A stretch of 24,707 nt of DNA from a virus: IMG/VR virus record IMGVR_UViG_3300042338_000373, positions 1 to 24,707 of that record. The stretch is one strand, 5' to 3'. The translations under genes and the position numbers were made by a program. The notes below the pieces were generated by a model that saw only the letters and a program-made list of their open reading frames with translations, was not told where the DNA came from and did no database searches. This document shows positions 3,165 through 18,542 of this stretch, piece by piece (the stretch's first letter is position 1; each line of letters begins with the position of its first letter).

Positions 3165-4118
3165 ATCTTCTCCCAAATAAACTTTGTCCTGTTACAAAAA
3201 CTGACCTTATCACCATACAGCCCCATGGTATTGTCATGTCACCGAACTTACGAAGCTGGTCATGTCGGGATGACACACCAGCGGAACTCGCCCGTAGTAA
3301 GCCTGTCTAACCAGGAGCGTAGGGACATTGTGACCTGAAAGGGGGTTCGGATCCCATGCATAGAGTCAAGCCGACAGTCGAATCGGATGCCAGCTAGTAA
3401 GCCGTGGGTAGGTAGTTAATATATGAAACGAGTGAACATCGATAAGGTTCGGGAGTTGGTACGGTGTAGGGCCGCCAACGGTAGGGCATTGGGGCAGACC
3501 GAAAGGTCTGAGACAAAGTTAAAGTCACCGATGTGACAACACACGGATGACAACAACGAACTTCGACAGCCACGCTGGCGATGGTGAGGCGTTAGCCGCC
3601 AACGGCGGAACATCCCTTGACCTACCAACATCGAAGATGCCAAGCCCCCGGCAAGGACACCCCTTTCAAAAAGGTCGAAAAATACGGGAGAGTGAACAAG
3701 AAGGGGGGGGTGGGGCCCCCCTAGGGGTGCGGGGTGGGGTGTGTGGTTGGTGGGCAAGGTCATCGGCAGGTGATGGGGATACGGGCAACGGCCACCGAAC
3801 CGACAGCGAACCGAACCAGGGACGGGCCACGGCCACGGGCCACCAGGTGAACCAGGAGACGCACACCAGGGCAACGACCTGCCGCCCTCGCGGGCTCGGT
3901 TGCCACCAATACCAACGGCCGCAACTAGCCATGCTTACCGACAGCGACGGCCACCACGGGCCACGAATTCGGCCGCATAGTTTCGGGTTGGTTTGGCCTG
4001 GCGAATGGTTGCCAGATGGTCGGGGGTTAATGCTTGATCGGTGGCGGTGGCGTGTATAGAATCGGGGTTGCGGGTCCGTGCGGGCTCGTCCGTTTCGGCG
4101 GTCAACAGTTAGGGGTCA
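3165..4118. other. Gene-free region between divergent operons, with G-tracts and hairpins
   Basis: About 950 bases separate the leftward terminase operon from the rightward 4119-6978 operon. Open frames exist on both strands but have low-complexity translations, no ribosome sites and no recognisable protein, so they are treated as chance. Visible structure: a GNRA hairpin GACCGAAAGGTC, a nearby hairpin GTCAC-CGAT-GTGAC (about 3498-3538), a repeated 11-mer GCCGCCAACGG (3471-3481 and 3595-3605), a run of G-tracts (3703-3739), and six copies of GGCCAC between about 3790 and 3970. The right end holds the rightward promoter. A leftward promoter for the terminase operon must lie near 3180-3260, but no strong match was found. 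A structured non-coding RNA is possible and unproven. Confidence 0.6.
4034..4062 (+). promoter_or_regulatory. Sigma70-type promoter for the 4119-6978 operon
   Basis: The -35 TTGATC (4034-4039) and -10 TAGAAT (4057-4062) are separated by exactly 17 bases. The predicted transcription start is near 4069, giving a leader of about 50 bases before the first gene. It points rightward and stands just upstream of the first gene of the operon, with no competing promoter between. Confidence 0.7.
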
Positions 4119-4634
4119 ATGATGAAAGATATGTCGGTTCATTTCTCCAATATGGGGAACTTGGCGCAGGCTTTGGCCGCGCATTATGGCGGCGCGGCCG
4201 TCTGCAATATGGGCAAGGCGGGAAATGTTGCTTCGTCGGCGTGGCACGTCTCGGTTGATGGTGAGCGTCTCGTGACGTTGTGTGATAACGGGTTGAATCC
4301 GATCTGGTTGTTTGTTGGCCAGAAGGCGGCGATGTCTCGCGATGTGTGGATGCTTAGCGAAGCGGTGTCGTTCATTGATCTAGCGAGCGAGGCTTCGGAA
4401 GATGTTGGTCGTGTCATGTCTGACGATGGTGTCACGTTCCAGTACTCGGTTGAGTATTGGGTGACCATTCGAGGCGGCGAAGTTGTCAGCGATTCAAAAG
4501 ATGCTGAATTCATTGGTGTTTTTAATGCTGAGACTTTGGAAGATCTGACCGGGGAGGATCTAGATCTAGTTGTCAATGCGTACGGCCCGATAGCGGATGC
4601 ACGCGCTGAACGTGACATGGGGTTGTCGTCGTGA
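4119..4634 (+). CDS. Unknown acidic protein, first gene of rightward operon
   Basis: A protein of about 171 residues, acidic toward the C-terminus (ETLEDLTGEDLDLVV). The N-terminal part resembles a small alpha/beta fold: a predicted helix (NLAQALAAHYGG) followed by strands (SAWHVSVDGERLVTL). There are two adjacent ATGs, 4119 and 4122; AGGGG (4111-4115) is 3 bases from the first and 6 from the second, so the second may be the true start. It is the first gene after the 4034-4062 promoter and overlaps the next gene as GTGA. No family is recognised. Confidence 0.75.
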   Translation: MMKDMSVHFSNMGNLAQALAAHYGGAAVCNMGKAGNVASSAWHVSVDGERLVTLCDNGLNPIWLFVGQKAAMSRDVWMLSEAVSFIDLASEASEDVGRVMSDDGVTFQYSVEYWVTIRGGEVVSDSKDAEFIGVFNAETLEDLTGEDLDLVVNAYGPIADARAERDMGLSS

Positions 4635-4822
4635 CGTTGTTTTTGATAGTTCATCCAGGAACGGAAACGATCTTGAACGCTCACGAATGTTTCATGGTTG
4701 ACATTGACTCATTAGACGATCATGACAGCGCGGTGCTTGCGTCGTTGGATGATGACGAATACTTAGATAACGCGGCCGTGGTTGAGATCGTGACGCGTTG
4801 CGGTCGGGCGGTTGTTGGTTGA
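4631..4822 (+). CDS. Small acidic unknown protein
   Basis: A 63-residue, strongly acidic protein (central DIDSLDDHDSAVLASLDDDEY) with two cysteines. The GTG start overlaps the previous stop (GTGA, 4631-4634), so it is coupled to that gene. The net negative charge would suit a protein-binding or DNA-mimic role, but that is speculation. No family is recognised. Confidence 0.65.
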   Translation: MTLFLIVHPGTETILNAHECFMVDIDSLDDHDSAVLASLDDDEYLDNAAVVEIVTRCGRAVVG

Positions 4823-4829
4823 TCGTTCA

Positions 4830-4872
4830 GCGCGGCCCTGGGGGCTTGTTCGGGTTCAATTCCTGACCGCGC
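4830..4872 (+). other. tRNA-like acceptor plus T-arm minihelix in an intergenic gap
   Basis: The gap between two operon genes contains a 5-bp stem with a 7-base loop TTCAATT (stem 4850-4854 with 4862-4866). It satisfies the usual tRNA T-arm invariants (G53, T54, T55, C56, purine 57, A58, pyrimidine 60, C61). It is flanked by GCGCGG (4830-4835) and CCGCGC (4867-4872), which pair like an acceptor stem. Only 14 bases lie where a D-arm and anticodon arm should be, so this is not a normal tRNA. It may be a tRNA remnant, a tRNA-like RNA hairpin, a tRNA-derived attachment core, or chance. Confidence 0.35.
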
Positions 4873-4917
4873 ACTACTCGCCCAACGGGGGCGGGTTCAA
4901 TGAATAAAGGGGTAATG

Positions 4918-5202
4918 ATGAGAGTTCAAGTAACTAGAAGAATCACGGCGGGGGCGGTGGTCATGTACGAGGTTGACGTGTACGAGGTCGCGTCTCTTGA
5001 GATGTGCAACATGGCCACGGCTTCGGCCGATGTTTTTTCGTCGGTCGTTTCGTTAGAAGACATCTACGAACAAGTCACGAACGGCGAATGGATCAAGGGC
5101 CATTTAGAGGCGACACAATTTGACTCTGACGGTGTCGGTATTTATGCCGATTTAGACGGCGAACAACTAGACGAGGTTGTACGGGTTGAGGTGTTCGGAT
5201 GA
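4918..5202 (+). CDS. Unknown small beta-rich protein
   Basis: A protein of about 94 residues beginning MRVQVTRRITAGAVV. The alternation of hydrophobic and charged residues (VMYEVDVYEVASLEM, EVVRVEVF) suggests a mostly beta fold, and it is acidic. Three in-frame starts exist at 4900, 4915 and 4918. AAAGGGG at 4905-4911 is optimally spaced only for 4918, so that start is used. It overlaps the next gene by ATGA. No family is recognised. Confidence 0.7.
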   Translation: MRVQVTRRITAGAVVMYEVDVYEVASLEMCNMATASADVFSSVVSLEDIYEQVTNGEWIKGHLEATQFDSDGVGIYADLDGEQLDEVVRVEVFG

Positions 5203-5549
5203 ACGAGCCAACGTTTAGTTATCTATCCAATGGGACCTATGTTCAAGACATACCAGGCGGTTACATAGAACTACCGCGGCCCGATGAAAGCGGCCCGACA
5301 CAAACAGAGCGTGACGCGGCCCGATGGAATGCGTTTATGAGTACGCCCATTCAGAATGGGTCATCGTGGGCGCGGGCCGTCGTGGCTCCTCGTCTCGTGG
5401 CGTGTGCTTCGTGTGAGAACGTCGGCGCGCCCGATGTGTTTCTTGATGTTCGTATTGCGGCTGTCGTTCCGTGGGATGTCATGGGCGACCCTCGTTCGTT
5501 CGCTTTTGTTTGCGATGAATGCGCGAGCGGTTCGGCGGTGGTGTTGTGA
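5199..5549 (+). CDS. Small CxxC zinc-binding-type protein
   Basis: A 116-residue protein with two cysteine pairs in its second half, CASC near residue 70 and CDEC near residue 107, giving a probable four-cysteine zinc ribbon. The first half is polar with a proline-rich stretch (IELPRPDESGPTQ). The start overlaps the upstream gene as ATGA (5199-5202), and the stop overlaps the next GTG (GTGA, 5546-5549), so it lies inside one translationally coupled series. No function is recognised. Confidence 0.72.
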   Translation: MNEPTFSYLSNGTYVQDIPGGYIELPRPDESGPTQTERDAARWNAFMSTPIQNGSSWARAVVAPRLVACASCENVGAPDVFLDVRIAAVVPWDVMGDPRSFAFVCDECASGSAVVL

Positions 5550-6562
5550 CTACCTCGAAAAAAGCTTCAGAAATTAGGCCATCTAGCAGGGCTTTTACGG
5601 CGAGTCTGACCGGGGTCGGCGGCGGCGTTGGTGTCGTGTGTCGTTGCGGTGTGTCGCTTCGGTTCATGCTTCACCATGACGCGAAGACAGCCCCATTAGT
5701 AGCGATCAAGGCGAACGGGTCCGCGTCGGCGTTAATCCCTAACGCGTTCCCGTTGCCCGTCGGGCCGCTTGATATGGGCGGTTCGTGTGACGCGACAACG
5801 GCGGCGTGTGTTGACTGTTACGCGGCGAACCTTGAGAGTCTCTACAGCAATTTCGGGCGGGGTGCTTCGGCCAACCTTGCGAACCTTGAACACTTGAAAG
5901 CGTGCGGCGGTCAACGTGCTGTCGTGGCCGCGTTGGTTGCGTGCGTTCAACATTCCGAGAGTCAACAACGGGCGCGGGGTGTTGCGCGGCCGTCGTTCCG
6001 TTGGCATTCGGGCGGCGACATTTTCGCGGCCTGGTATGGGCGCGCAATTCGTGCGGCCGTCGTGGCTTCGCCAGGTGTGGCCCATTGGATTTATACGCGC
6101 GACGCGGTCAAGGTCAAGAGCCTGCTGCCCGTGCCCGATAACTTGCGGGTCATGTTGTCGGCGGACTCGGAGAACGTCGCCAGGATGGCCAGGGCGGGCT
6201 ACAAACTCGGTTTGCCGCTTGCCATGCTTGCGGACAATCAAGCGCACGCTGTCGCATTGTGGGCCCGTGCTGCGGCCGCTGCTCCCGTGGTTGCTCCCAT
6301 TGAATGCCCCGCAACGGGCAAGTATGCGCGAGATGGTCAAGGCGTGGCGGCTCATGTCGTCGGCCCTGATCGGCGGCGGTCGTCGGCCGTGCGTGGCGGG
6401 TCGGGCGTTGGTGCGTGCGTTGCGTGCCTCGTGTGTTTGCCCGTGGGCCGTGTTCGTGGCGTGACGTTCTTGTTGCATGGTGGCAAGAATCGCGGCGCGT
6501 CTGCGGGTCGTCTCGGTGCGGCCGTGGCCGTTCGTGTACGTCGTGCGGCGGTGGTGTCGTGA
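5546..6562 (+). CDS. GP88-like cysteine-cluster protein
   Basis: A protein of 338 residues resembling the actinophage 'gene product 88' family, whose function is not established. Visible hallmarks (numbered from the GTG at 5546): C81, C88 and C91 in SCDATTAACVDCYA; the block FRWHSGGDIF at 151-160; a YTR segment near 183-185; C254; and a C-x2-C-x2-C cluster at 291/294/297. The cysteine arrangement could bind a metal or an iron-sulfur cluster, perhaps as in radical-SAM-like phage proteins; that is inference. The GTG start overlaps the previous stop (GTGA); an in-frame ATG at 5519 would overlap the previous gene by 31 bases. The first 25 residues are encoded within a 45-bp repeat that recurs just after the gene. 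Confidence 0.72.
   Translation: MTTSKKASEIRPSSRAFTASLTGVGGGVGVVCRCGVSLRFMLHHDAKTAPLVAIKANGSASALIPNAFPLPVGPLDMGGSCDATTAACVDCYAANLESLYSNFGRGASANLANLEHLKACGGQRAVVAALVACVQHSESQQRARGVARPSFRWHSGGDIFAAWYGRAIRAAVVASPGVAHWIYTRDAVKVKSLLPVPDNLRVMLSADSENVARMARAGYKLGLPLAMLADNQAHAVALWARAAAAAPVVAPIECPATGKYARDGQGVAAHVVGPDRRRSSAVRGGSGVGACVACLVCLPVGRVRGVTFLLHGGKNRGASAGRLGAAVAVRVRRAAVVS
5575..5619 (+). repeat. 45-bp direct repeat, left copy
   Basis: A perfect 45-bp match to 6591-6635, 1,016 bp away. This copy encodes residues 11-25 of the GP88-like protein (RPSSRAFTASLTGVG). The repeat reading phase is identical in both copies. Confidence 0.95.
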
Positions 6563-6654
6563 ACACACATTCGAAGCACGCACGAAAAACTAGGCCATCT
6601 AGCAGGGCTTTTACGGCGAGTCTGACCGGGGTCGGTTCGGCGGTGGCGTTGTGA
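6559..6654 (+). CDS. 31-residue peptide mirroring the GP88-like N-terminus
   Basis: A short frame starting at a GTG that overlaps the GP88-like stop (GTGA, 6559-6562) and ending at a TGA. Its central segment RPSSRAFTASLTGVG is identical to residues 11-25 of the preceding protein because both are encoded by the 45-bp repeat in the same phase. It may be a real coupled peptide, or the scar of a duplication in which the rest of a second copy was lost. The coupling and frame conservation favour something more than chance; no function can be given. Confidence 0.45.
   Translation: MNTHSKHARKTRPSSRAFTASLTGVGSAVAL
6591..6635 (+). repeat. 45-bp direct repeat, right copy
   Basis: A perfect copy of 5575-5619. 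Together the two copies bracket nearly the whole GP88-like gene; recombination between them would remove 1,016 bp and leave a single short in-frame peptide gene. Confidence 0.95.
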
Positions 6655-6705
6655 TCGTGTTCGCGTGTTGGGTTTGTTGGGTGTGTGCCGTGGTGGTGGT
6701 GTGCC

Positions 6706-6978
6706 GTGACTGACCGTGTGGACTTGCTCCCGTGTGCCGTGTCTAAATACGACCATAACCACAAACACTCGGCGCGCTGTCTGCCCGTGGTGGCCCGACA
6801 CCTGCCACCGCTCCGCCCAGGTTGGTCGTGGGGTTGGGGTCGCTCCCGTGGCGGTTGGTCCGTGTGGATGGATTACCCAGGCGGGCGGGCCTGGTTGGTT
6901 GGGCTCCCCACGTGCACCAGGGCGGCCGACCTAGTCGTCGTCGTTTGGGCGTATGTACTCGGGTCCCGACACAATTGA
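6706..6978 (+). CDS. Possible small Trp/Gly/Arg-rich protein
   Basis: A 90-residue open frame starting at a GTG (MTDRVDLLPCAVSKYDHN...). It is rich in Trp, Gly and Arg in the middle and hydrophobic near the end (ADLVVVVWAYVLG). It ends 12 bases before a strong terminator, as expected for the last gene of the operon. Against it: no good ribosome site, a 51-base gap to the previous frame, and GC-rich sequence that keeps several frames open. Alternative start at 6685. Treated as possible only. Confidence 0.4.
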   Translation: MTDRVDLLPCAVSKYDHNHKHSARCLPVVARHLPPLRPGWSWGWGRSRGGWSVWMDYPGGRAWLVGLPTCTRAADLVVVVWAYVLGSRHN

Positions 6979-6990
6979 CCCGACAACATT

Positions 6991-7025
6991 GGGGCCGCCT
7001 CCGAATGGGGGCGGCCCCTTTTTTT
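6991..7025 (+). terminator. Rho-independent terminator of the rightward operon
   Basis: A 12-base-pair stem (one G-T pair) with a GAAT loop (6991-7002 pairing with 7007-7018) is followed directly by seven T residues. It ends the operon that begins at the 4034-4062 promoter. It is not bidirectional, since no T-tract lies on the other side. The 217 bases from here to the recombinase-like gene hold no recognised gene. Confidence 0.95.
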
Positions 7026-7242
7026 ATTTCCCGATTCAAAGCTTCAACTACACTTTTCCGAAAACGGGCGGGCGGAACAGGTCCTACCGAGAACCCACCA
7101 ACCCCGGCGGGCGGCCGGACCACCAAAAATTCCTGGGTGTGGGGTAGATCTGATTGCTTACCGTCAAAATATTTTCGCATTTGTGGGGTCGATGGGCGGT
7201 TTTGGGGTGAATAAATGGGTTTTGGTGTGGTAAACATTGTTT

Positions 7243-8142
7243 ATGGCTTCTGTACGATCAATTACGGCTCATCATCTTGGGTCTTATGCCTCGATTCATA
7301 CTCGTAAACGGTACAAGAAGGACATTATGACGTGGCAACGATGGTGCACTTTGGTGGACATTCATCCCCTGGATTGCACCCAACTGAACGCTCAAATGTT
7401 TGTTGATTGGATGGTTTCGCAGTACACGTCTGCTTCGGTTTCGTCTCGTGTTTGTGGGGTGGCTCGATGGATGGATGCGCTGGTTGATGGTGGGGTCGTG
7501 CGTTCGCATGGTTTGCATTCGGTGAAGCTTCCGAAGCGGGTGGTGGTGTTGAGTTCTGATTGCTTACCGTCGGATGATGAGATGGTTTTGGTTATGAGTG
7601 CGTTTGCTGGCCGGGGACCAAGGTGGGAGTGGCTTGCTGCGATGGTCGCTTGGGGTGGCTGTGATTGCGCTGAAGCTTTGCGGGTTCGGAAGACTGATGT
7701 TCGGACGTGGGAAGGTAAGACGTTGATTACGGTGCGTTCTCGGCGTGGTAACAGGCGTGAGATTCCGGTGGACGGTCGTCTCGAAGTGTTGACTCTTGGG
7801 TTAGCTGCGGTGTTCGCTGCAACAACGTCGTTGGGTGGGTCGTTTAATAGTAAGCACGGGACTGAGACGATCAATGATGTTGCTTCGAAAGCTGTTGGCC
7901 GCCGGTTGACGGTGCAGGATATGCGTCGGTGGGCTGTCCAGCGTCAGTTTGATCGGGGTGTGCCGGTTCCGGTGATTGCTAAATGGTTGGGGCATACGAA
8001 TGAACGTAATGTTCGTCAGACGTTGCGGTTGCTTGACCCTGTCGCACAGGTGCGGCAGTCTGATGTGATTGCTCAGATTGTGGTGGAGCCTAATGGGGAT
8101 CGATTCGGGTCGGGTTCTGTACCTGACTCGGTTATTTTGTGA
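7243..8142 (+). CDS. Tyrosine-recombinase-like protein lacking most catalytic residues
   Basis: A protein of about 299 residues with integrase architecture: an N-terminal SAM-like core-binding region (HTRKRYKKDIMTWQRWC) and a C-terminal catalytic-fold region. Using XerD/Cre spacing, the second Arg (R228) and the LGH histidine (H251) are kept 23 residues apart, as in XerD. The first Arg of the G-x-R-x-x-E block is Asp (GCDCAEAL), the beta-hairpin Lys is Arg (RRGNRREIPV), the H of HxxR is Gln (VQDMRRW), and the nucleophile position nine after H251 is Thr. Strand cleavage is therefore unlikely. It may be a DNA-binding pseudo-integrase or a decaying gene; the frame is intact. ATG 7243 is preferred over TTG 7237. 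The 3' end overlaps a leftward gene by 11 bases. Confidence 0.8.
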   Translation: MASVRSITAHHLGSYASIHTRKRYKKDIMTWQRWCTLVDIHPLDCTQLNAQMFVDWMVSQYTSASVSSRVCGVARWMDALVDGGVVRSHGLHSVKLPKRVVVLSSDCLPSDDEMVLVMSAFAGRGPRWEWLAAMVAWGGCDCAEALRVRKTDVRTWEGKTLITVRSRRGNRREIPVDGRLEVLTLGLAAVFAATTSLGGSFNSKHGTETINDVASKAVGRRLTVQDMRRWAVQRQFDRGVPVPVIAKWLGHTNERNVRQTLRLLDPVAQVRQSDVIAQIVVEPNGDRFGSGSVPDSVIL

Positions 8143-13113: not shown

Positions 13114-13382
13114 TACATCTTTTGTTGCGGTTGCGTCATTGAGAATGCTTTAACAAGATTCATAACATTTTGATTCATGTCGCCAGCTTCGGATGAAACA
13201 TATGACATTCGACCAATCTTGTCTTCTAGTTCTTGGCCACGTTGGTCACCAATCATTTGTTCAACGTATTGTTTGTATGAAGGTGTGTCGGCGTAAACAG
13301 TTGCGCTGGTTTTGTCTGTAAGTATGACAGCGTTGTTTCGGTTTGGGCCTTCTTTGTCAGCAATAATTCTGATGTACCTCAT
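13113..13382 (-). CDS. Unknown small protein ending the tagged-protein operon
   Basis: An 89-residue protein: strands at the start (MRYIRIIADKEG, NAVILTD), helical afterwards (YKQYVEQMIGDQRGQELEDK), with a Met/Gln-rich tail. Its ATG overlaps the stop of the kinase-containing gene as ATGA (13379-13382), so it is made together with it. It could be an immunity, chaperone or assembly partner of that protein, but only position supports this. No family is recognised. Confidence 0.7.
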   Translation of the reverse strand: MRYIRIIADKEGPNRNNAVILTDKTSATVYADTPSYKQYVEQMIGDQRGQELEDKIGRMSYVSSEAGDMNQNVMNLVKAFSMTQPQQKM

Positions 13383-15694
13383 GGGTTCACGTACTCCTTG
13401 ATTTGATCAATATATTTTTGGGCAAGTTCTTCGGGGTCAGCAGACAAAAATGCTTTTACTTTATTTTCAAATGATTGAATTTGATTATCAAAATCCCATT
13501 TATCAACAGCATTAAGGTCGGTAAAATCAATTCCAACTTTTTTTGTTGTTTCTAAAAGTTTTGATTCAAACCTTTTTACTATTTGAGAAGTTTGTAAATC
13601 ATCTTGTATTTTTGTAATTATTGTTTTAATTTCTTCAAACAATTTTATTGGGTCAGCTTTATAAGCCTCACGAACACTAAAATTCATAGCGGCAGGATAT
13701 CCAATTCCAGTATCACGTGCTGGAAAAAAAGTTATTTCGTGGTCAATGGGGACTAATCGAACGCCCCCGGCTTCATCAATAGAAAACAATACGTTGCTTA
13801 CATTTCGATCTCCATTATCAATTAACAAATCTAAAACTGCCATGCGAATACGGTCTTCTATTGGAACAAAGTTTCCTGGGGCTAATGATTGTGGAAGATT
13901 TGCGTTTGCGGGAACTGCTGCATAGTGTGAATCTATAATTTTGCCACCGTAAACATCTTGAGCAAGATCAGTAATAATAGAAACACTCTGATCACCATTG
14001 ACTATCAACCTCAAATTCATATTAGGGAATCCGAGAGCAACAGCAACTTCGTTACTTAATATTTCTCCCATTGGGCCATCTAAAGTAGAAGTGTAAAAAC
14101 CGTTACTTTGTCGTATTGGATTTTTAAATAAAAACCTATATTGAGGTCTGTATTTCAAACCAAAGTGTTTCCCTGTTGCTCGATCAACATATCTATCCAT
14201 GCCAATATGGCCGCCTGCTGAACCAATTCGATCAAACCTTCCACCTTCAAACCCGTTGTTTCTAATGGCTTCCCACAAATATTCGGGCGCAACTTTTTCT
14301 AATTGTTCTAATAAACCGCCGTTGGTAATGAAATAATGCGCTGCATCAGGACTACTAATAACAAAATTTGGTTCTAAAACTTTTGTTGGTGATAAAGATT
14401 CCATAATGGAATCAAAATATGGTTGATAATTTTGTGGAACCAATTCTTCGTGAAATTGCCATTCGTTTACAAAATTTGGGCCTTGAACAGCATCAAACGC
14501 ATTTTGTGGCCCAGGTGTAGGTATTTGATAACTGGGATCAATTAAACCAGCTTGTTGTAATTGTTCAATTAAGGGTCGAGGTATATTTGGCGACGGTATT
14601 AAAGGGTATTGCGATTTTAAGAAATCAAATTGTTTTAATTCATGCAATGCAGCCGCTGCCAGTTGAGGAACAGCAAATTCATCTACAACACCCATCATTT
14701 CTAGCGTGGCTGTTTGTGTTGCAAAATCAACATCAATATTCATTGCGCCTGTCATGTTTTTTGTATTTTTATCTAATACCTTTAATGTGATATTTCGCCC
14801 ATTTTTAAGTAAATTACCGTATTCATCTAAGTGTGGTTCAGTATATTTTACGACCCTGCTGTTGGGAAGTTGTCTTGACCACGGCAACTTAACAATTTCA
14901 ACAGCAGGCGCGACTGGTTGCGGAGTTAATGCGCGAGTAGTTTGTGCTTCGGCTAGTCGAGTTGCCGGGGATGCAGGTGAGTCAACGATGCGAGCTGGAA
15001 CGCGTGATCCTTCCGCACTATCAATAATTCTTCCAGGACTAGTAGTTAAATTTCTAGGAACTCCTGGAGATACTAATTCTCCTTCTACAAATCCTTTTGG
15101 TCTAACTTTTGCAACACCAACTTTGGCTAACGAACCTGCGCCAAATACATTAAGAAGGTCTTCAACTCCCATGGTTATGCCTTCGCCACGTTTGTACGCT
15201 TGAGCATAGTTAATACCTGGTTCTCCAAAGTCTTTACCGCCAACAACTTGACCTAAGTCAGCAATGTTTTTTCCAGTATTAACAAACGAATTAACAACAC
15301 CCAACGGGACAATTAAAGGATTCTCTTGAAGCGCAGCAGCAAACATTTCGCTTTCTTTAGTGCCGGGAATAAATGTTTTGCCCGTTGTTGCAGCTGTTGA
15401 AAGCAATCCACGGACATTGTCCATAAAGCCTTTGGGTGGATCGGGCGGTCGAACTGTTCCTTTGTTAAAACTTGGCACGGCAGTAGGTGCTACAGGTTTT
15501 GAGAAATCAACTTTTTGACCGTTGGCGTAGATGTTGCCTTGAGCATCTCTTGTTATGCCAGGCCCAAGAACACTCCCAGCCAATTGGGCGTTTGTTGCAG
15601 CGTCTTGTTCGGCTTTCTTTTTAGCCAAGCGTTCAGCCATGTCGGCGGTCGTGTACGGCAATTGCCGTGTAGGGGGTTCGGGTCGAGGGAGCAT
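13379..15694 (-). CDS. Tagged protein with PI3/PI4-kinase-like kinase domain
   Basis: A 771-residue protein. Residues 1-30 are the tag shared with the next two upstream genes (MLPRPEPP...YTTADMAERLAKKKAEQ). About 100-260 is a Gly/Ala-rich region with the block GSRVPARIVDSP (229-240), also shared. About 300-392 matches the central domain of the 15694-17334 protein. About 485-655 carries kinase-type motifs of the PI3/PI4-kinase-like class: a Gly-rich turn GSAGGHIG, K514 in FGLKYR, an acidic E544, the catalytic block DNGDRNVSN (D629, N634) and the metal-binding IDH (D651). The C-terminus is coiled-coil. It probably phosphorylates protein, lipid or another target; delivery with the virion is inferred. 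The 3' part is much more AT-rich than the 5' part. TAATG overlap with the preceding gene. Confidence 0.85.
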   Translation of the reverse strand: MLPRPEPPTRQLPYTTADMAERLAKKKAEQDAATNAQLAGSVLGPGITRDAQGNIYANGQKVDFSKPVAPTAVPSFNKGTVRPPDPPKGFMDNVRGLLSTAATTGKTFIPGTKESEMFAAALQENPLIVPLGVVNSFVNTGKNIADLGQVVGGKDFGEPGINYAQAYKRGEGITMGVEDLLNVFGAGSLAKVGVAKVRPKGFVEGELVSPGVPRNLTTSPGRIIDSAEGSRVPARIVDSPASPATRLAEAQTTRALTPQPVAPAVEIVKLPWSRQLPNSRVVKYTEPHLDEYGNLLKNGRNITLKVLDKNTKNMTGAMNIDVDFATQTATLEMMGVVDEFAVPQLAAAALHELKQFDFLKSQYPLIPSPNIPRPLIEQLQQAGLIDPSYQIPTPGPQNAFDAVQGPNFVNEWQFHEELVPQNYQPYFDSIMESLSPTKVLEPNFVISSPDAAHYFITNGGLLEQLEKVAPEYLWEAIRNNGFEGGRFDRIGSAGGHIGMDRYVDRATGKHFGLKYRPQYRFLFKNPIRQSNGFYTSTLDGPMGEILSNEVAVALGFPNMNLRLIVNGDQSVSIITDLAQDVYGGKIIDSHYAAVPANANLPQSLAPGNFVPIEDRIRMAVLDLLIDNGDRNVSNVLFSIDEAGGVRLVPIDHEITFFPARDTGIGYPAAMNFSVREAYKADPIKLFEEIKTIITKIQDDLQTSQIVKRFESKLLETTKKVGIDFTDLNAVDKWDFDNQIQSFENKVKAFLSADPEELAQKYIDQIKEYVNP

Positions 15695-17334
15695 TAGCTA
15701 AATATCTCGTCTTCGGGAAGTTTCAACAAAATGTTTTCTAATTCAGACATCAAACGGATGCGACTTGCTTCATTAATTAAGTAAGCATCTTTTAAGATAT
15801 CGGGGAATTTTTTTAGATTTTCAGGAGTGTTAGCGTAATTGTCAGCGAAATAACCAAGATCTTCAGATGGTTTAATTTTTCCCCACATATCAATTAGTTT
15901 TTGTGCAGCTGAACTGGGATTTGCAAAAATTTCTCCCATAAAAGAATCAAATTCATTATCTGACATTTGTTTTAACAATGGGTGTTCGGGTATTCTTAAA
16001 GACTGCATACTTGCGCGATAAGCCGCAGCGTCATTTAGCCCTGGCGGTCGGAACTTTAATGTTTGTAATTCTTTTGATGACGTGGTAAGTCGTCCAGTTT
16101 TACCTGCAAGTTTTGCTTGACGTTGGCTTTCAATTAATGCTTTAAGAATGTCGTTATATGTTGGTTGATATGACAATGGATCAATAACTGTTTGTGTTCC
16201 TGTAAATGGAGAAGCAAAATGTCCTGGCACAGTTTGTTTAGTTATTGAATTCATCATATTAACTTTGGGCAGTTCATAATTTGGATCAATTAATCCAGCT
16301 TGTTGTAAACGCTCAACAAACGGTCGAGAATATGCCGACAAACTATCTGATGGATCAATAGGAAATTGAGCTGTGCTGCCTAATTTTTTTATTTCTGTTG
16401 CAGCCGCAGCGACTAATTGTGGAGTAACCGTGGGGCTGGTTGCAGACATTCCTACAACTTTTGCTGTTCCATTGTAAGCTGAATAACTTAATGTAATAAC
16501 TCCTGTATATTCGCCTGTTTGCTGATTAAATGAGCGAATAGTAACAAATGCAATATTTTTGTCGCCTACAATTTCTGATGTTAAACGGCTTGATGCTGGT
16601 ACTTGTCGTTCACGAAATGCTGGTGGTGTTAAGCGCGACGCAGGCGGTTCTATTACTCCTGGCGCAATCTCGGCAGGTAGTGTGGGTGAGTCAACAACAC
16701 GAGCTGGTACACGCGATCCCTGTAGCGCGTCAACGTCAATAACGTCGTCTGCGTAACGCAAAGCAGGGAATGGATTTGCTGCACGTTCCATGCGAGCAAG
16801 TTTGTACGCGTTAAGAACATCGCCTGTCACGCCAGCACCTTTAGCCACGACCGGGATGAACTGCGAGTAGTCAATGGCTGCGCCTAGTACGCCTCGTGCT
16901 ACGCCTTGTTCGCGTATCTGATCTGCGGTGTACGACGGCGAGTCTGCACCTACTCGTGGGATTGCTGTGATGTCACCGACTGCTCGACGGACAGCGAGTC
17001 GTGCTGGTTCTGTTACTAACGATTTACCTGTGCCTTGGCCACCCATTGACACCCCGGCATTGCCACCCATGTTGACTGGTGTTGAGATTGGGTTAGACAT
17101 GGGCATATTGTCGTAGACAGATTTGATTGCACCACCGACGGCTCCCAAAGCATCCCTGTACCACGGCTCATCTTTTTTAACAGCGGGCGGATTGGTGACA
17201 CCAAAGCGTAAAGCCTGGTTGGCTTTGGCTTGTTCGGCTGCCTCTTGCTCGGCTTTGCGCTTGGCTAGACGTTCGCTCATATCTGCCGTGGTGTACGGCA
17301 GTCGTCTTGCGGGGGCATCAGGTCGAGGCAACAT
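15694..17334 (-). CDS. Tagged protein of unknown function, sharing a domain with the kinase protein
   Basis: A 546-residue protein. It has the N-terminal tag (residues 1-30), then ANQALRFGVTNPP, and a Met/Gly/Asn-rich stretch (76-105). RRAVGDITAIPRVG (116-129) is identical to the 17337-18542 protein, and GSRVPARVVDSP (206-217) matches the kinase protein. Residues about 258-355 (with TPQLVAAAATEIKKL and QQAGLIDPNYELP) match about 300-392 of the kinase protein and may be an alpha/beta domain. The last 170 residues are helical, AT-rich in DNA, and unlike anything I recognise; no kinase motifs are present. It starts two bases after the upstream stop. Probably a virion-associated or injected protein by neighbourhood. 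Confidence 0.82.
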   Translation of the reverse strand: MLPRPDAPARRLPYTTADMSERLAKRKAEQEAAEQAKANQALRFGVTNPPAVKKDEPWYRDALGAVGGAIKSVYDNMPMSNPISTPVNMGGNAGVSMGGQGTGKSLVTEPARLAVRRAVGDITAIPRVGADSPSYTADQIREQGVARGVLGAAIDYSQFIPVVAKGAGVTGDVLNAYKLARMERAANPFPALRYADDVIDVDALQGSRVPARVVDSPTLPAEIAPGVIEPPASRLTPPAFRERQVPASSRLTSEIVGDKNIAFVTIRSFNQQTGEYTGVITLSYSAYNGTAKVVGMSATSPTVTPQLVAAAATEIKKLGSTAQFPIDPSDSLSAYSRPFVERLQQAGLIDPNYELPKVNMMNSITKQTVPGHFASPFTGTQTVIDPLSYQPTYNDILKALIESQRQAKLAGKTGRLTTSSKELQTLKFRPPGLNDAAAYRASMQSLRIPEHPLLKQMSDNEFDSFMGEIFANPSSAAQKLIDMWGKIKPSEDLGYFADNYANTPENLKKFPDILKDAYLINEASRIRLMSELENILLKLPEDEIFS

Positions 17335-17336
17335 GG

Positions 17337-18542
17337 TTATCGATTCACCATATTGTCAAACAATTTTTGTGCGGAAGGATCACGAAGAAGTTCTTCTAAC
17401 GGTGCATTGGGATCAAGTTTGTAAATGCCGGGGTAATACGTTTCTGTACCTGGCATAAATCCACGACTAATAGTTATGCGAAGTTGTTCTTCAGCCATTT
17501 GGCGCGGCCTATTTATTACGTCACGTCTGACTTGTGGGTTCATGCCACGAAATTTAGATTCAAGTCTGTCGGCTTGTGCGCTTCGTTGAGTGATGCCATA
17601 TTTTTCTAAAACTGCTTGTAAAGCAGCACGCTCTCTTGGCAGTTGTGTAATTACTTCTTGATTTCCAGCAACACGCAATGAAGGTGAATTAAGGACGTTT
17701 GCGTCTTGAAAAACTGTATTTGCAGGAGCGCGCGTCAAATATATTTCAGGCGTGTGGTAAGCAAGTTCTTCGGGAGTCATCAGAAAATCAGCAAGTTCGG
17801 GGTTAAGTTGCCAATTATCAAAAATTTGTGAAATTCCTTGTGGACTTTTAGCGTCCCACATATATGACGAGCCAGTCATAGAGTCGCCAGCCATATATTG
17901 GTTTTGCATTGCTTTGCGGGCCTGAATTTCTGCGAGGTCAGCCATAGGTGAGACATGGATACCGTATGTGTACGGGATTTCTGTTGCGACATTTGCGCCA
18001 CGAATACCTTGAACACCTTTAGCTGCTGCACCTGCAAAGGGTGCTGCCGTAGCGGCCAGGTTGCCGTAATCAAGGATTGCTCCACCAAGTCCTTCAACAA
18101 AACCTTTTTGTCTAATATCTGCAGCGGTTGGTGACGCAGACGGTTCACCTACACGGGGGATTGCCGTAATGTCACCGACTGCTCGACGCGTAGCCGCTTC
18201 TAATCCTTGACCGCCAGCTTGGAAGAAGTTGGATGTGCCGTCGTTTTCGGGTTCGTAGCCCCACGCGCCTTCGCCCGCAACCCCAGGAAGTTTAGTGGAG
18301 TATGGAATCATGTCTAATATTGTGCCACCAGGCATTAAGGCTAATGATTTAGCCATGTTCCCAACTTGAGATAGCCAGCCACCACCACTTTTTTTAGGTT
18401 CAGGTGCAGGTGCAGGCGGGTTGGTGACACCATAACGCAGAGCCTGGTTGGCCTGTTCGGCTTTTTTTTTAGCCAAACGCTCGCTCATATCGGCGGTCGT
18501 ATACGCCAATCGAGTTGCAGGGGCTTCGGCGCGAGGCAACAT
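17337..18542 (-). CDS. Tagged protein, possible ADP-ribosyltransferase-like module
   Basis: A 401-residue protein beginning with the shared tag (MLPRAEAP...YTTADMSERLAKKKAEQ) and ANQALRYGVTNPPA, then a Gly-rich region and RRAVGDITAIPRVG (119-132), identical to the downstream paralogue. Residues 190-300 differ from both paralogues. YGIHVSPM (193-200), PEIYLTRAP (265-273) and NQEVITQLP (294-302) are loosely like the His-Tyr-Glu order of ADP-ribosyltransferase folds found in phage polyvalent proteins; this is a weak resemblance. The C-terminus is helical and basic. It begins three bases after the stop of the Gly/Met-rich gene. Confidence 0.82.
   Translation of the reverse strand: MLPRAEAPATRLAYTTADMSERLAKKKAEQANQALRYGVTNPPAPAPEPKKSGGGWLSQVGNMAKSLALMPGGTILDMIPYSTKLPGVAGEGAWGYEPENDGTSNFFQAGGQGLEAATRRAVGDITAIPRVGEPSASPTAADIRQKGFVEGLGGAILDYGNLAATAAPFAGAAAKGVQGIRGANVATEIPYTYGIHVSPMADLAEIQARKAMQNQYMAGDSMTGSSYMWDAKSPQGISQIFDNWQLNPELADFLMTPEELAYHTPEIYLTRAPANTVFQDANVLNSPSLRVAGNQEVITQLPRERAALQAVLEKYGITQRSAQADRLESKFRGMNPQVRRDVINRPRQMAEEQLRITISRGFMPGTETYYPGIYKLDPNAPLEELLRDPSAQKLFDNMVNR

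What the first reader, a model, noticed from the sequence alone, without database searches (positions are those of the whole stretch)
7243..8142. Tyrosine-recombinase-like protein with four of six catalytic positions changed
Taking the spacing of XerD and Cre, the second Arg and the LGH histidine are kept. However, Arg1 is Asp, Lys is Arg, HxxR starts with Gln, and the nucleophile Tyr position is Thr. The frame is complete and has no stop, so it may be a pseudo-integrase kept for DNA binding, or a phage losing lysogeny.
Basis: partly seen in the sequence, partly recalled or inferred. Interest (0 to 1): 0.62.

Follow-up and report, generated by a model that had tools for sequence, protein, structure and literature searches.

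The report
Conserved dead integrase, probable phage regulator
A family of uncultured phages, probably of actinobacteria, has kept under strong selection a DNA-recombining enzyme that can no longer cut DNA, and conserved DNA boxes around its gene suggest it now works as a DNA-binding switch, as the unrelated SPbeta repressor MrpR does.

Summary
Window 7243-8142 (+) encodes a 299-aa tyrosine-recombinase-fold protein whose active site is dismantled: ArgI is Asp, Lys is Arg, the HxxR His is Gln, Tyr is Thr; only ArgII and the LGH His remain. Its catalytic domain has no tyrosine. It is not decay. Homologues in 26 other virus contigs (48-100% identity) share the losses at ArgI, HxxR and Tyr under strong purifying selection (dN/dS 0.01-0.16). 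All 17 homologue-bearing records searched carry exactly one such gene and no serine recombinase. The gene ends a roughly 4-kb inverted module that sister phages lack. A sharp asymmetric 15-bp box (GGCGTGCNTNCCGAC) lies at the module's other end. Related direct repeats sit in the gene's own promoter, and the two sets co-vary phage by phage (permutation p = 0.00025). Best reading: a recombinase domesticated as a DNA-binding regulator. It works like SPbeta MrpR (YopR), a repressor with this fold and a 15-bp site, but is not in that sequence family, so the loss looks independent. Fold, loss of catalytic residues and selection are well supported; box binding and repression are inferred.

The parts
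7243..8142 (+). pseudo-integrase ORF (299 aa): core-binding domain about residues 1-95, catalytic-fold domain about 105-265, low-confidence tail
7663..7665 (+). codon of D141 at the catalytic ArgI position (D, or E in the most distant members)
7744..7746 (+). codon of R168 at the catalytic beta-hairpin Lys position (R, K or A in the family)
7915..7917 (+). codon of Q225 at the first position of HxxR (Gln in all)
7924..7926 (+). codon of R228, catalytic ArgII (kept in all)
7993..7995 (+). codon of H251, LGH His (kept in all)
8020..8022 (+). codon of T260 at the nucleophile Tyr position (Thr, or Val in the most distant members)
7133..7143 (+). CTGGGTGTGGG: exact copy only once in each of eight sequences searched, about 80-122 nt upstream of this gene throughout the family
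7149..7165 (+). promoter-proximal candidate binding site TCTGATTGCTTACCGTC (window's counterpart of the direct repeats seen in other phages)
7555..7571 (+). exact 17-nt second copy of that site inside the ORF, in the interdomain linker codons
3929..3942 (+). distal box CCATGCTTACCGAC (family consensus GGCGTGCNTNCCGAC), sharply conserved, asymmetric
4034..4062 (+). sigma-70-like promoter TTGATC-17-TAGAAT about 90 nt downstream of the distal box; the only hit in 6 kb, but no more than shuffles give
   Evidence: aligned promoter-like sequence in close relatives
4119..6978 (+). rest of the inverted module: small genes of unknown function, the gp88-like gene (PF17338) and a small ORF
6991..7018 (+). 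intrinsic-terminator-like hairpin between the module's upstream genes and the pseudo-integrase promoter

Best explanation
The protein descends from a XerC/phage-type tyrosine recombinase that lost catalysis but kept its two-domain DNA clamp. It was domesticated in an ancestor of this phage clade as a sequence-specific DNA-binding regulator. It probably binds, as monomers, asymmetric half-site boxes of about 15 bp. One box is at the far end of its module, upstream of the module's promoter region. The others are direct repeats in its own promoter, giving autoregulation, and in two lineages there is one inside its own gene. Through these it would control a switch between the inverted module and the main operon, as a lysogeny-type or early/late repressor. 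Shown: fold, loss of catalytic residues, purifying selection, conserved boxes, co-variation of the two box sets, and joint absence of box and gene in sister phages. Inferred: that this protein binds the boxes, that binding represses transcription, and the lysis-lysogeny role.
For: Fold and family. Losses shared by all sampled homologues. dN/dS 0.014-0.157. Only recombinase homologue, one per record, in 17 of 17 records, and no serine recombinase. Distal box: invariant at eight of 15 positions across eight lineages with unconserved flanks; ranks first of about 15,000-50,000 positions in 16 of 20 loci with a leave-one-lineage-out matrix, and in the top four in all. Promoter repeats of 9-20 nt are identical or nearly so within a phage and differ between phages; they match their own phage's distal box better than other phages' boxes, permutation p = 0.00025. 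Lineage E has the same 15-mer at -106 and about -3.9 kb. Lineage D has the exact distal box inside the gene. Sister phages (TerL 69-73%) lack pseudo-integrase, module and box but keep WhiB, the terminase genes and their order. Precedent: MrpR has this fold, no recombinase activity, and a 15-bp motif at ten phage promoters including its own operon (PMC10516654).
Against: No binding data. The strong box occurs only once or a few times per genome, not at ten promoters as in SPbeta. In the two best-sampled lineages (A, which includes the window, and B) the promoter site does not match the distal box better than background by matrix score. Lineage B has no significant direct repeat. The presence/absence contrast with sister phages may be one phylogenetic event. 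The phages encode a WhiB-like protein and other candidate DNA binders that could recognise the box. No prophage state was found, so a lysogeny role is unproven.
Confidence: 0.55

Rival explanations
1. The protein is a DNA-binding architectural or replication factor. It binds iteron-like direct repeats next to an AT-rich stretch (CAAAATATTTTCG or CAAAAATTT) upstream of its gene and marks an origin or partition site rather than regulating transcription.
For: Direct repeats flank an AT-rich core in several lineages. No DNA polymerase, primase or Rep gene was recognised among the ORFs seen (inspection only).
Against: The repeats overlap the gene's own promoter region close to the start codon, as expected for autoregulation. 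Only two copies, none significant in lineage B. The distal box is single and has no AT-rich neighbour.
Confidence: 0.15
2. The boxes belong to another protein (WhiB-like regulator, terminase small subunit at a cos/pac site, host factor). The pseudo-integrase has a different role, for example occupying att or Xer sites of competitors.
For: The distal box lies about 1.6-4 kb from terL, near where packaging sites often lie. A conserved WhiB-like protein is encoded.
Against: Sister phages with 48-64% identical candidate small-terminase proteins and with WhiB lack the box. The related repeats sit in the pseudo-integrase promoter and co-vary with the box.
Confidence: 0.2
3. It is a decaying integrase, caught while the phage loses lysogeny, with no present function.
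For: Most catalytic residues are lost, and no other integrase or integrated copy was found.
Against: dN/dS 0.014-0.157, no stop or frameshift in any full-length homologue, and the same losses in lineages only 48% identical.
Confidence: 0.03
4. It is still an active recombinase with displaced or trans catalytic residues.
For: ArgII and His remain; some relatives have a Tyr four residues before the canonical position.
Against: The window protein has no Tyr in its catalytic domain, the alternative Tyr column is N/Y/W, and ArgI is acidic in every homologue.
Confidence: 0.03

Closest known systems
MrpR (YopR), master repressor of Bacillus phage SPbeta (PDB 8A0A, 8BJ6; PMC10516654)
   Same: Phage-encoded tyrosine-recombinase fold with most catalytic residues lost. 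ArgII is kept and the HxxR His is replaced (Asn there, Gln here). Asymmetric 15-bp motif, sites in its own operon. Found by Foldseek.
   Different: No detectable sequence relationship (hhalign probability 0.1; Pfam MrpR_N_CB and MrpR_C_cat not hit). MrpR keeps Tyr304 and Lys169 and has ten sites; this family lacks Tyr. SPbeta also carries a working serine integrase.
Phi3T SroF (PDB 9RD5)
   Same: Phage protein that the predicted structures match (TM about 0.5-0.57); solved bound to DNA.
   Different: Known here only from the PDB title; 11-12% identity; function not read.
Gordonia phage tyrosine integrases (for example Utz gp31)
   Same: Among the best sequence relatives with intact residues (hhalign E = 2e-13).
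   Different: Complete catalytic set R, K, H, R, H, Y; in Utz it lies in a lysogeny region with a serine integrase and an immunity repressor.
Tfp / GinC proteins of SE and GInt elements (PMC10214605)
   Same: Recombinase-fold proteins lacking the RHRY residues, conserved beside other genes.
   Different: They accompany active recombinases in integrative elements; here no active partner was found.
Crypton-derived DUF3504 proteins (PMC3212892)
   Same: Domesticated tyrosine recombinases lacking the catalytic Tyr; many are transcriptional regulators.
   Different: Animal genes; they lost ArgII, which is kept here.

Membership tests
Catalytically competent tyrosine recombinase/integrase (PF00589) | Tyrosine-recombinase fold and sequence relationship | tested here: met
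   PHROG 1 E = 1e-13, XerC 19/19 members, fold matches; PF00589 only below its cut-off for the window protein
Catalytically competent tyrosine recombinase/integrase (PF00589) | Catalytic set Arg-Lys-His-Arg-His/Trp-Tyr | tested here: not met
   ArgI, Lys, HxxR His and Tyr replaced in the window; ArgI, His and Tyr in all members
Catalytically competent tyrosine recombinase/integrase (PF00589) | DNA cleavage and strand exchange at an att/core site | not testable with these tools
   needs biochemistry
MrpR family (PF22822/PF22823) | Sequence membership | tested here: not met
   no hit; the YopR control hits PF22823 at 7e-146; hhalign probability 0.1
MrpR-like (works like MrpR) | Recombinase fold with loss of recombinase catalytic residues | tested here: met
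MrpR-like (works like MrpR) | Conserved asymmetric ~15-bp boxes in phage promoter regions including its own | tested here: inconclusive
   distal box strong; own-promoter repeats related and co-varying in most lineages but weak in lineages A and B
MrpR-like (works like MrpR) | Protein binds the boxes and represses lytic genes | not testable with these tools
   needs EMSA, ChIP and genetics

The most novel reading that the evidence does not exclude
Tyrosine recombinases have been turned into phage regulators more than once. This clade is an independent conversion in uncultured, probably actinobacterial, phages, with even the nucleophile lost, where an integrase-derived repressor is the core of a self-contained switch module (box, small genes, pseudo-integrase) in a phage clade without any integrase.
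Probability: 0.4. Interest if true: 0.75.

Novelty: new variant of a known kind. Interest (0 to 1): 0.58.

Why it matters
The MrpR authors suggested that recombinases recruited as transcription factors are more widespread than thought. This family would be an apparently independent case in phages of another bacterial group, with a predicted binding site that can be tested directly. It also warns that an 'integrase' hit is not proof of a temperate phage: these phages could be scored as lysogenic on a gene that, by its residues, cannot integrate DNA.

Tried and rejected
Decay rejected (dN/dS, breadth). A displaced nucleophile rejected (no Tyr in the catalytic domain; the alternative Tyr column is N/Y/W). 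A second true integrase sought and not found (PHROG 1 and serine resolvase in 17 records). Sequence search of the PDB gave nothing useful; only the fold search did. Integrated copies: none close in 395 genomes of the class of the Acidimicrobiales MAG, apart from that MAG's own 5-kb contig. The distal box as part of a two-armed att core: no inverted second half-site conserved. The distal box as coding sequence: its two variable positions are not both synonymous in any frame (reasoned). Single-matrix prediction of the promoter sites works in lineages C1, C3, D and E (C2 borderline) but not in A or B; lineage F's best matrix hit is not its repeat. Literature: no paper on this family found.

Full report
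WHAT IS THERE. The window is a 24.7-kb IMG/VR virus record. It carries phage genes: terminase, a WhiB-like protein, a RecT-like protein, a very large protein, a lysozyme-like protein. Relatives have records of up to 37-43 kb. The finding's ORF (7243-8142, +) is intact and encodes a 299-aa protein. PHROG 1 (integrase) recognises it at 1e-13, while Pfam's integrase model stays below its cut-off. All 19 aligned members match XerC weakly. Two AlphaFold models (mean pLDDT 78 and 80) match XerA, Cre, integron and lambda integrases in the PDB.

THE ACTIVE SITE. Across 22 homologues, ArgI is always acidic (D, or E in one lineage), HxxR is always Gln, and Tyr is Thr (or Val). ArgII and the LGH His never vary. 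Lys is R or K, or A in the most distant lineage. The window protein has no tyrosine after residue 61.

NOT DECAY. Homologues were found in 26 other virus contigs and one Acidimicrobiales MAG contig, 48-100% identical. Pairwise dN/dS is 0.014-0.157, and both domains are constrained. Of 17 records searched, each has exactly one PHROG 1 match (this gene) and none has a serine recombinase. One UniProt relative exists as an unnamed 'DNA_BRE_C' protein (83%).

SETTING. In relatives most conserved genes run in one direction. The exception is an inverted block of about 4 kb: small genes, a gp88-like gene, a small ORF, then the pseudo-integrase. Sister phages (terminase 69-73% identical) run WhiB, the small gene and the two terminase genes in the same order. 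They lack the whole block, the pseudo-integrase and any integrase (one search had no positive control of its own, but the same query matched the L027 genome).

CANDIDATE BINDING SITES. (a) A distal box, consensus GGCGTGCNTNCCGAC, lies at the block's other end (window 3929-3942), about 90 nt above a promoter-like sequence. A matrix trained without the lineage tested ranks it first of about 15,000-50,000 positions in 16 of 20 loci and in the top four in all. Flanks are unconserved and no inverted partner is conserved. With the full matrix it scores 19-27 in 22 of the terminase-selected contigs of the same clade (some are the same records as before), and no better than about 10.6 in all 18 sister contigs. 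Some clade contigs, mostly with little upstream sequence, also lack it. (b) Between an 11-nt motif (CTGGGTGTGGG) and the start codon most phages have two direct repeats that match each other but differ between phages. (c) These repeats resemble their own phage's distal box more than other phages' boxes: permutation p = 0.00025 over eight lineage representatives. (d) The window repeats its promoter site, 17 nt exactly, inside the gene (7555-7571), and lineage D has an exact distal box at nearly the same place.

MECHANISM. A recombinase monomer clamps one asymmetric half-site (established for Cre and lambda Int). A dead recombinase that keeps its clamp is therefore expected to bind single asymmetric boxes of this size. 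MrpR of SPbeta is the worked example: same fold, no recombination, a 15-bp motif at ten promoters including its own operon, and a master repressor of lysis (PMC10516654). I infer that the window protein binds the boxes, autoregulates, and controls the module promoter. The co-variation of two box sets 2-4 kb apart is what a single co-evolving DNA-binding protein would leave. Which protein that is remains unproven; the pseudo-integrase is the best candidate because one set is in its own promoter.

WEAK POINTS. The window's own lineage is one of the two in which the promoter site is not distinguishable from background by the matrix. The direct match to its own box is 10 of 15 positions (p = 0.013 against shuffles). 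Several tests were tried on the same sequences, so p-values are indicative. The promoter-like hit is a consensus match, no more frequent than in shuffles. The contrast with sister phages may be a single event. Temperate life is not shown. The host group (actinobacteria) rests on the WhiB-like gene, the weak relation of capsid and terminase to Arthrobacter and Microbacterium phages and one MAG contig.

COMPARISON. It works like MrpR but is not a member of its sequence family. MrpR keeps Tyr and Lys; this family has lost Tyr. Among the nearest intact relatives are Gordonia phage integrases.

Noticed in passing
window 5555-5619 and 6571-6635: A 65-nt near-identical direct repeat (45 nt exact) brackets the gp88-like gene. 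Of the sequences held it occurs only in the window and its near-identical contig L001; possible recent duplication or cassette boundary.
   Followed up: partly
window 13379-18542: Three tandem genes begin with the same N-terminal motif (MLPRPxAPxRxLPYTTADMxERLAKxKAEQ) followed by different bodies, perhaps virion-packaged proteins with a shared N-terminal tag.
   Followed up: no
window 13379-15694: Weak match to PI3_PI4_kinase (1.7e-4) and HipA_2 (6e-4) in the 771-aa protein, both below cut-off: a possible virion-delivered kinase.
   Followed up: no
L054 5938-9495 (Gordonia phage Utz): A tyrosine integrase with a complete catalytic set and a serine integrase lie within 4 kb, near an annotated immunity repressor.
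   Followed up: no
L055 33692-34768 (SPbeta yopP): A second integrase-like gene lies two genes upstream of mrpR/yopR in the same operon (PF00589 2e-10).
   Followed up: no
L002 about 3890-3950; L004 about 7770-7830: Clusters of AGCGTGC-type repeats about 2.2 kb upstream of the pseudo-integrase in two lineage-A phages.
   Followed up: no
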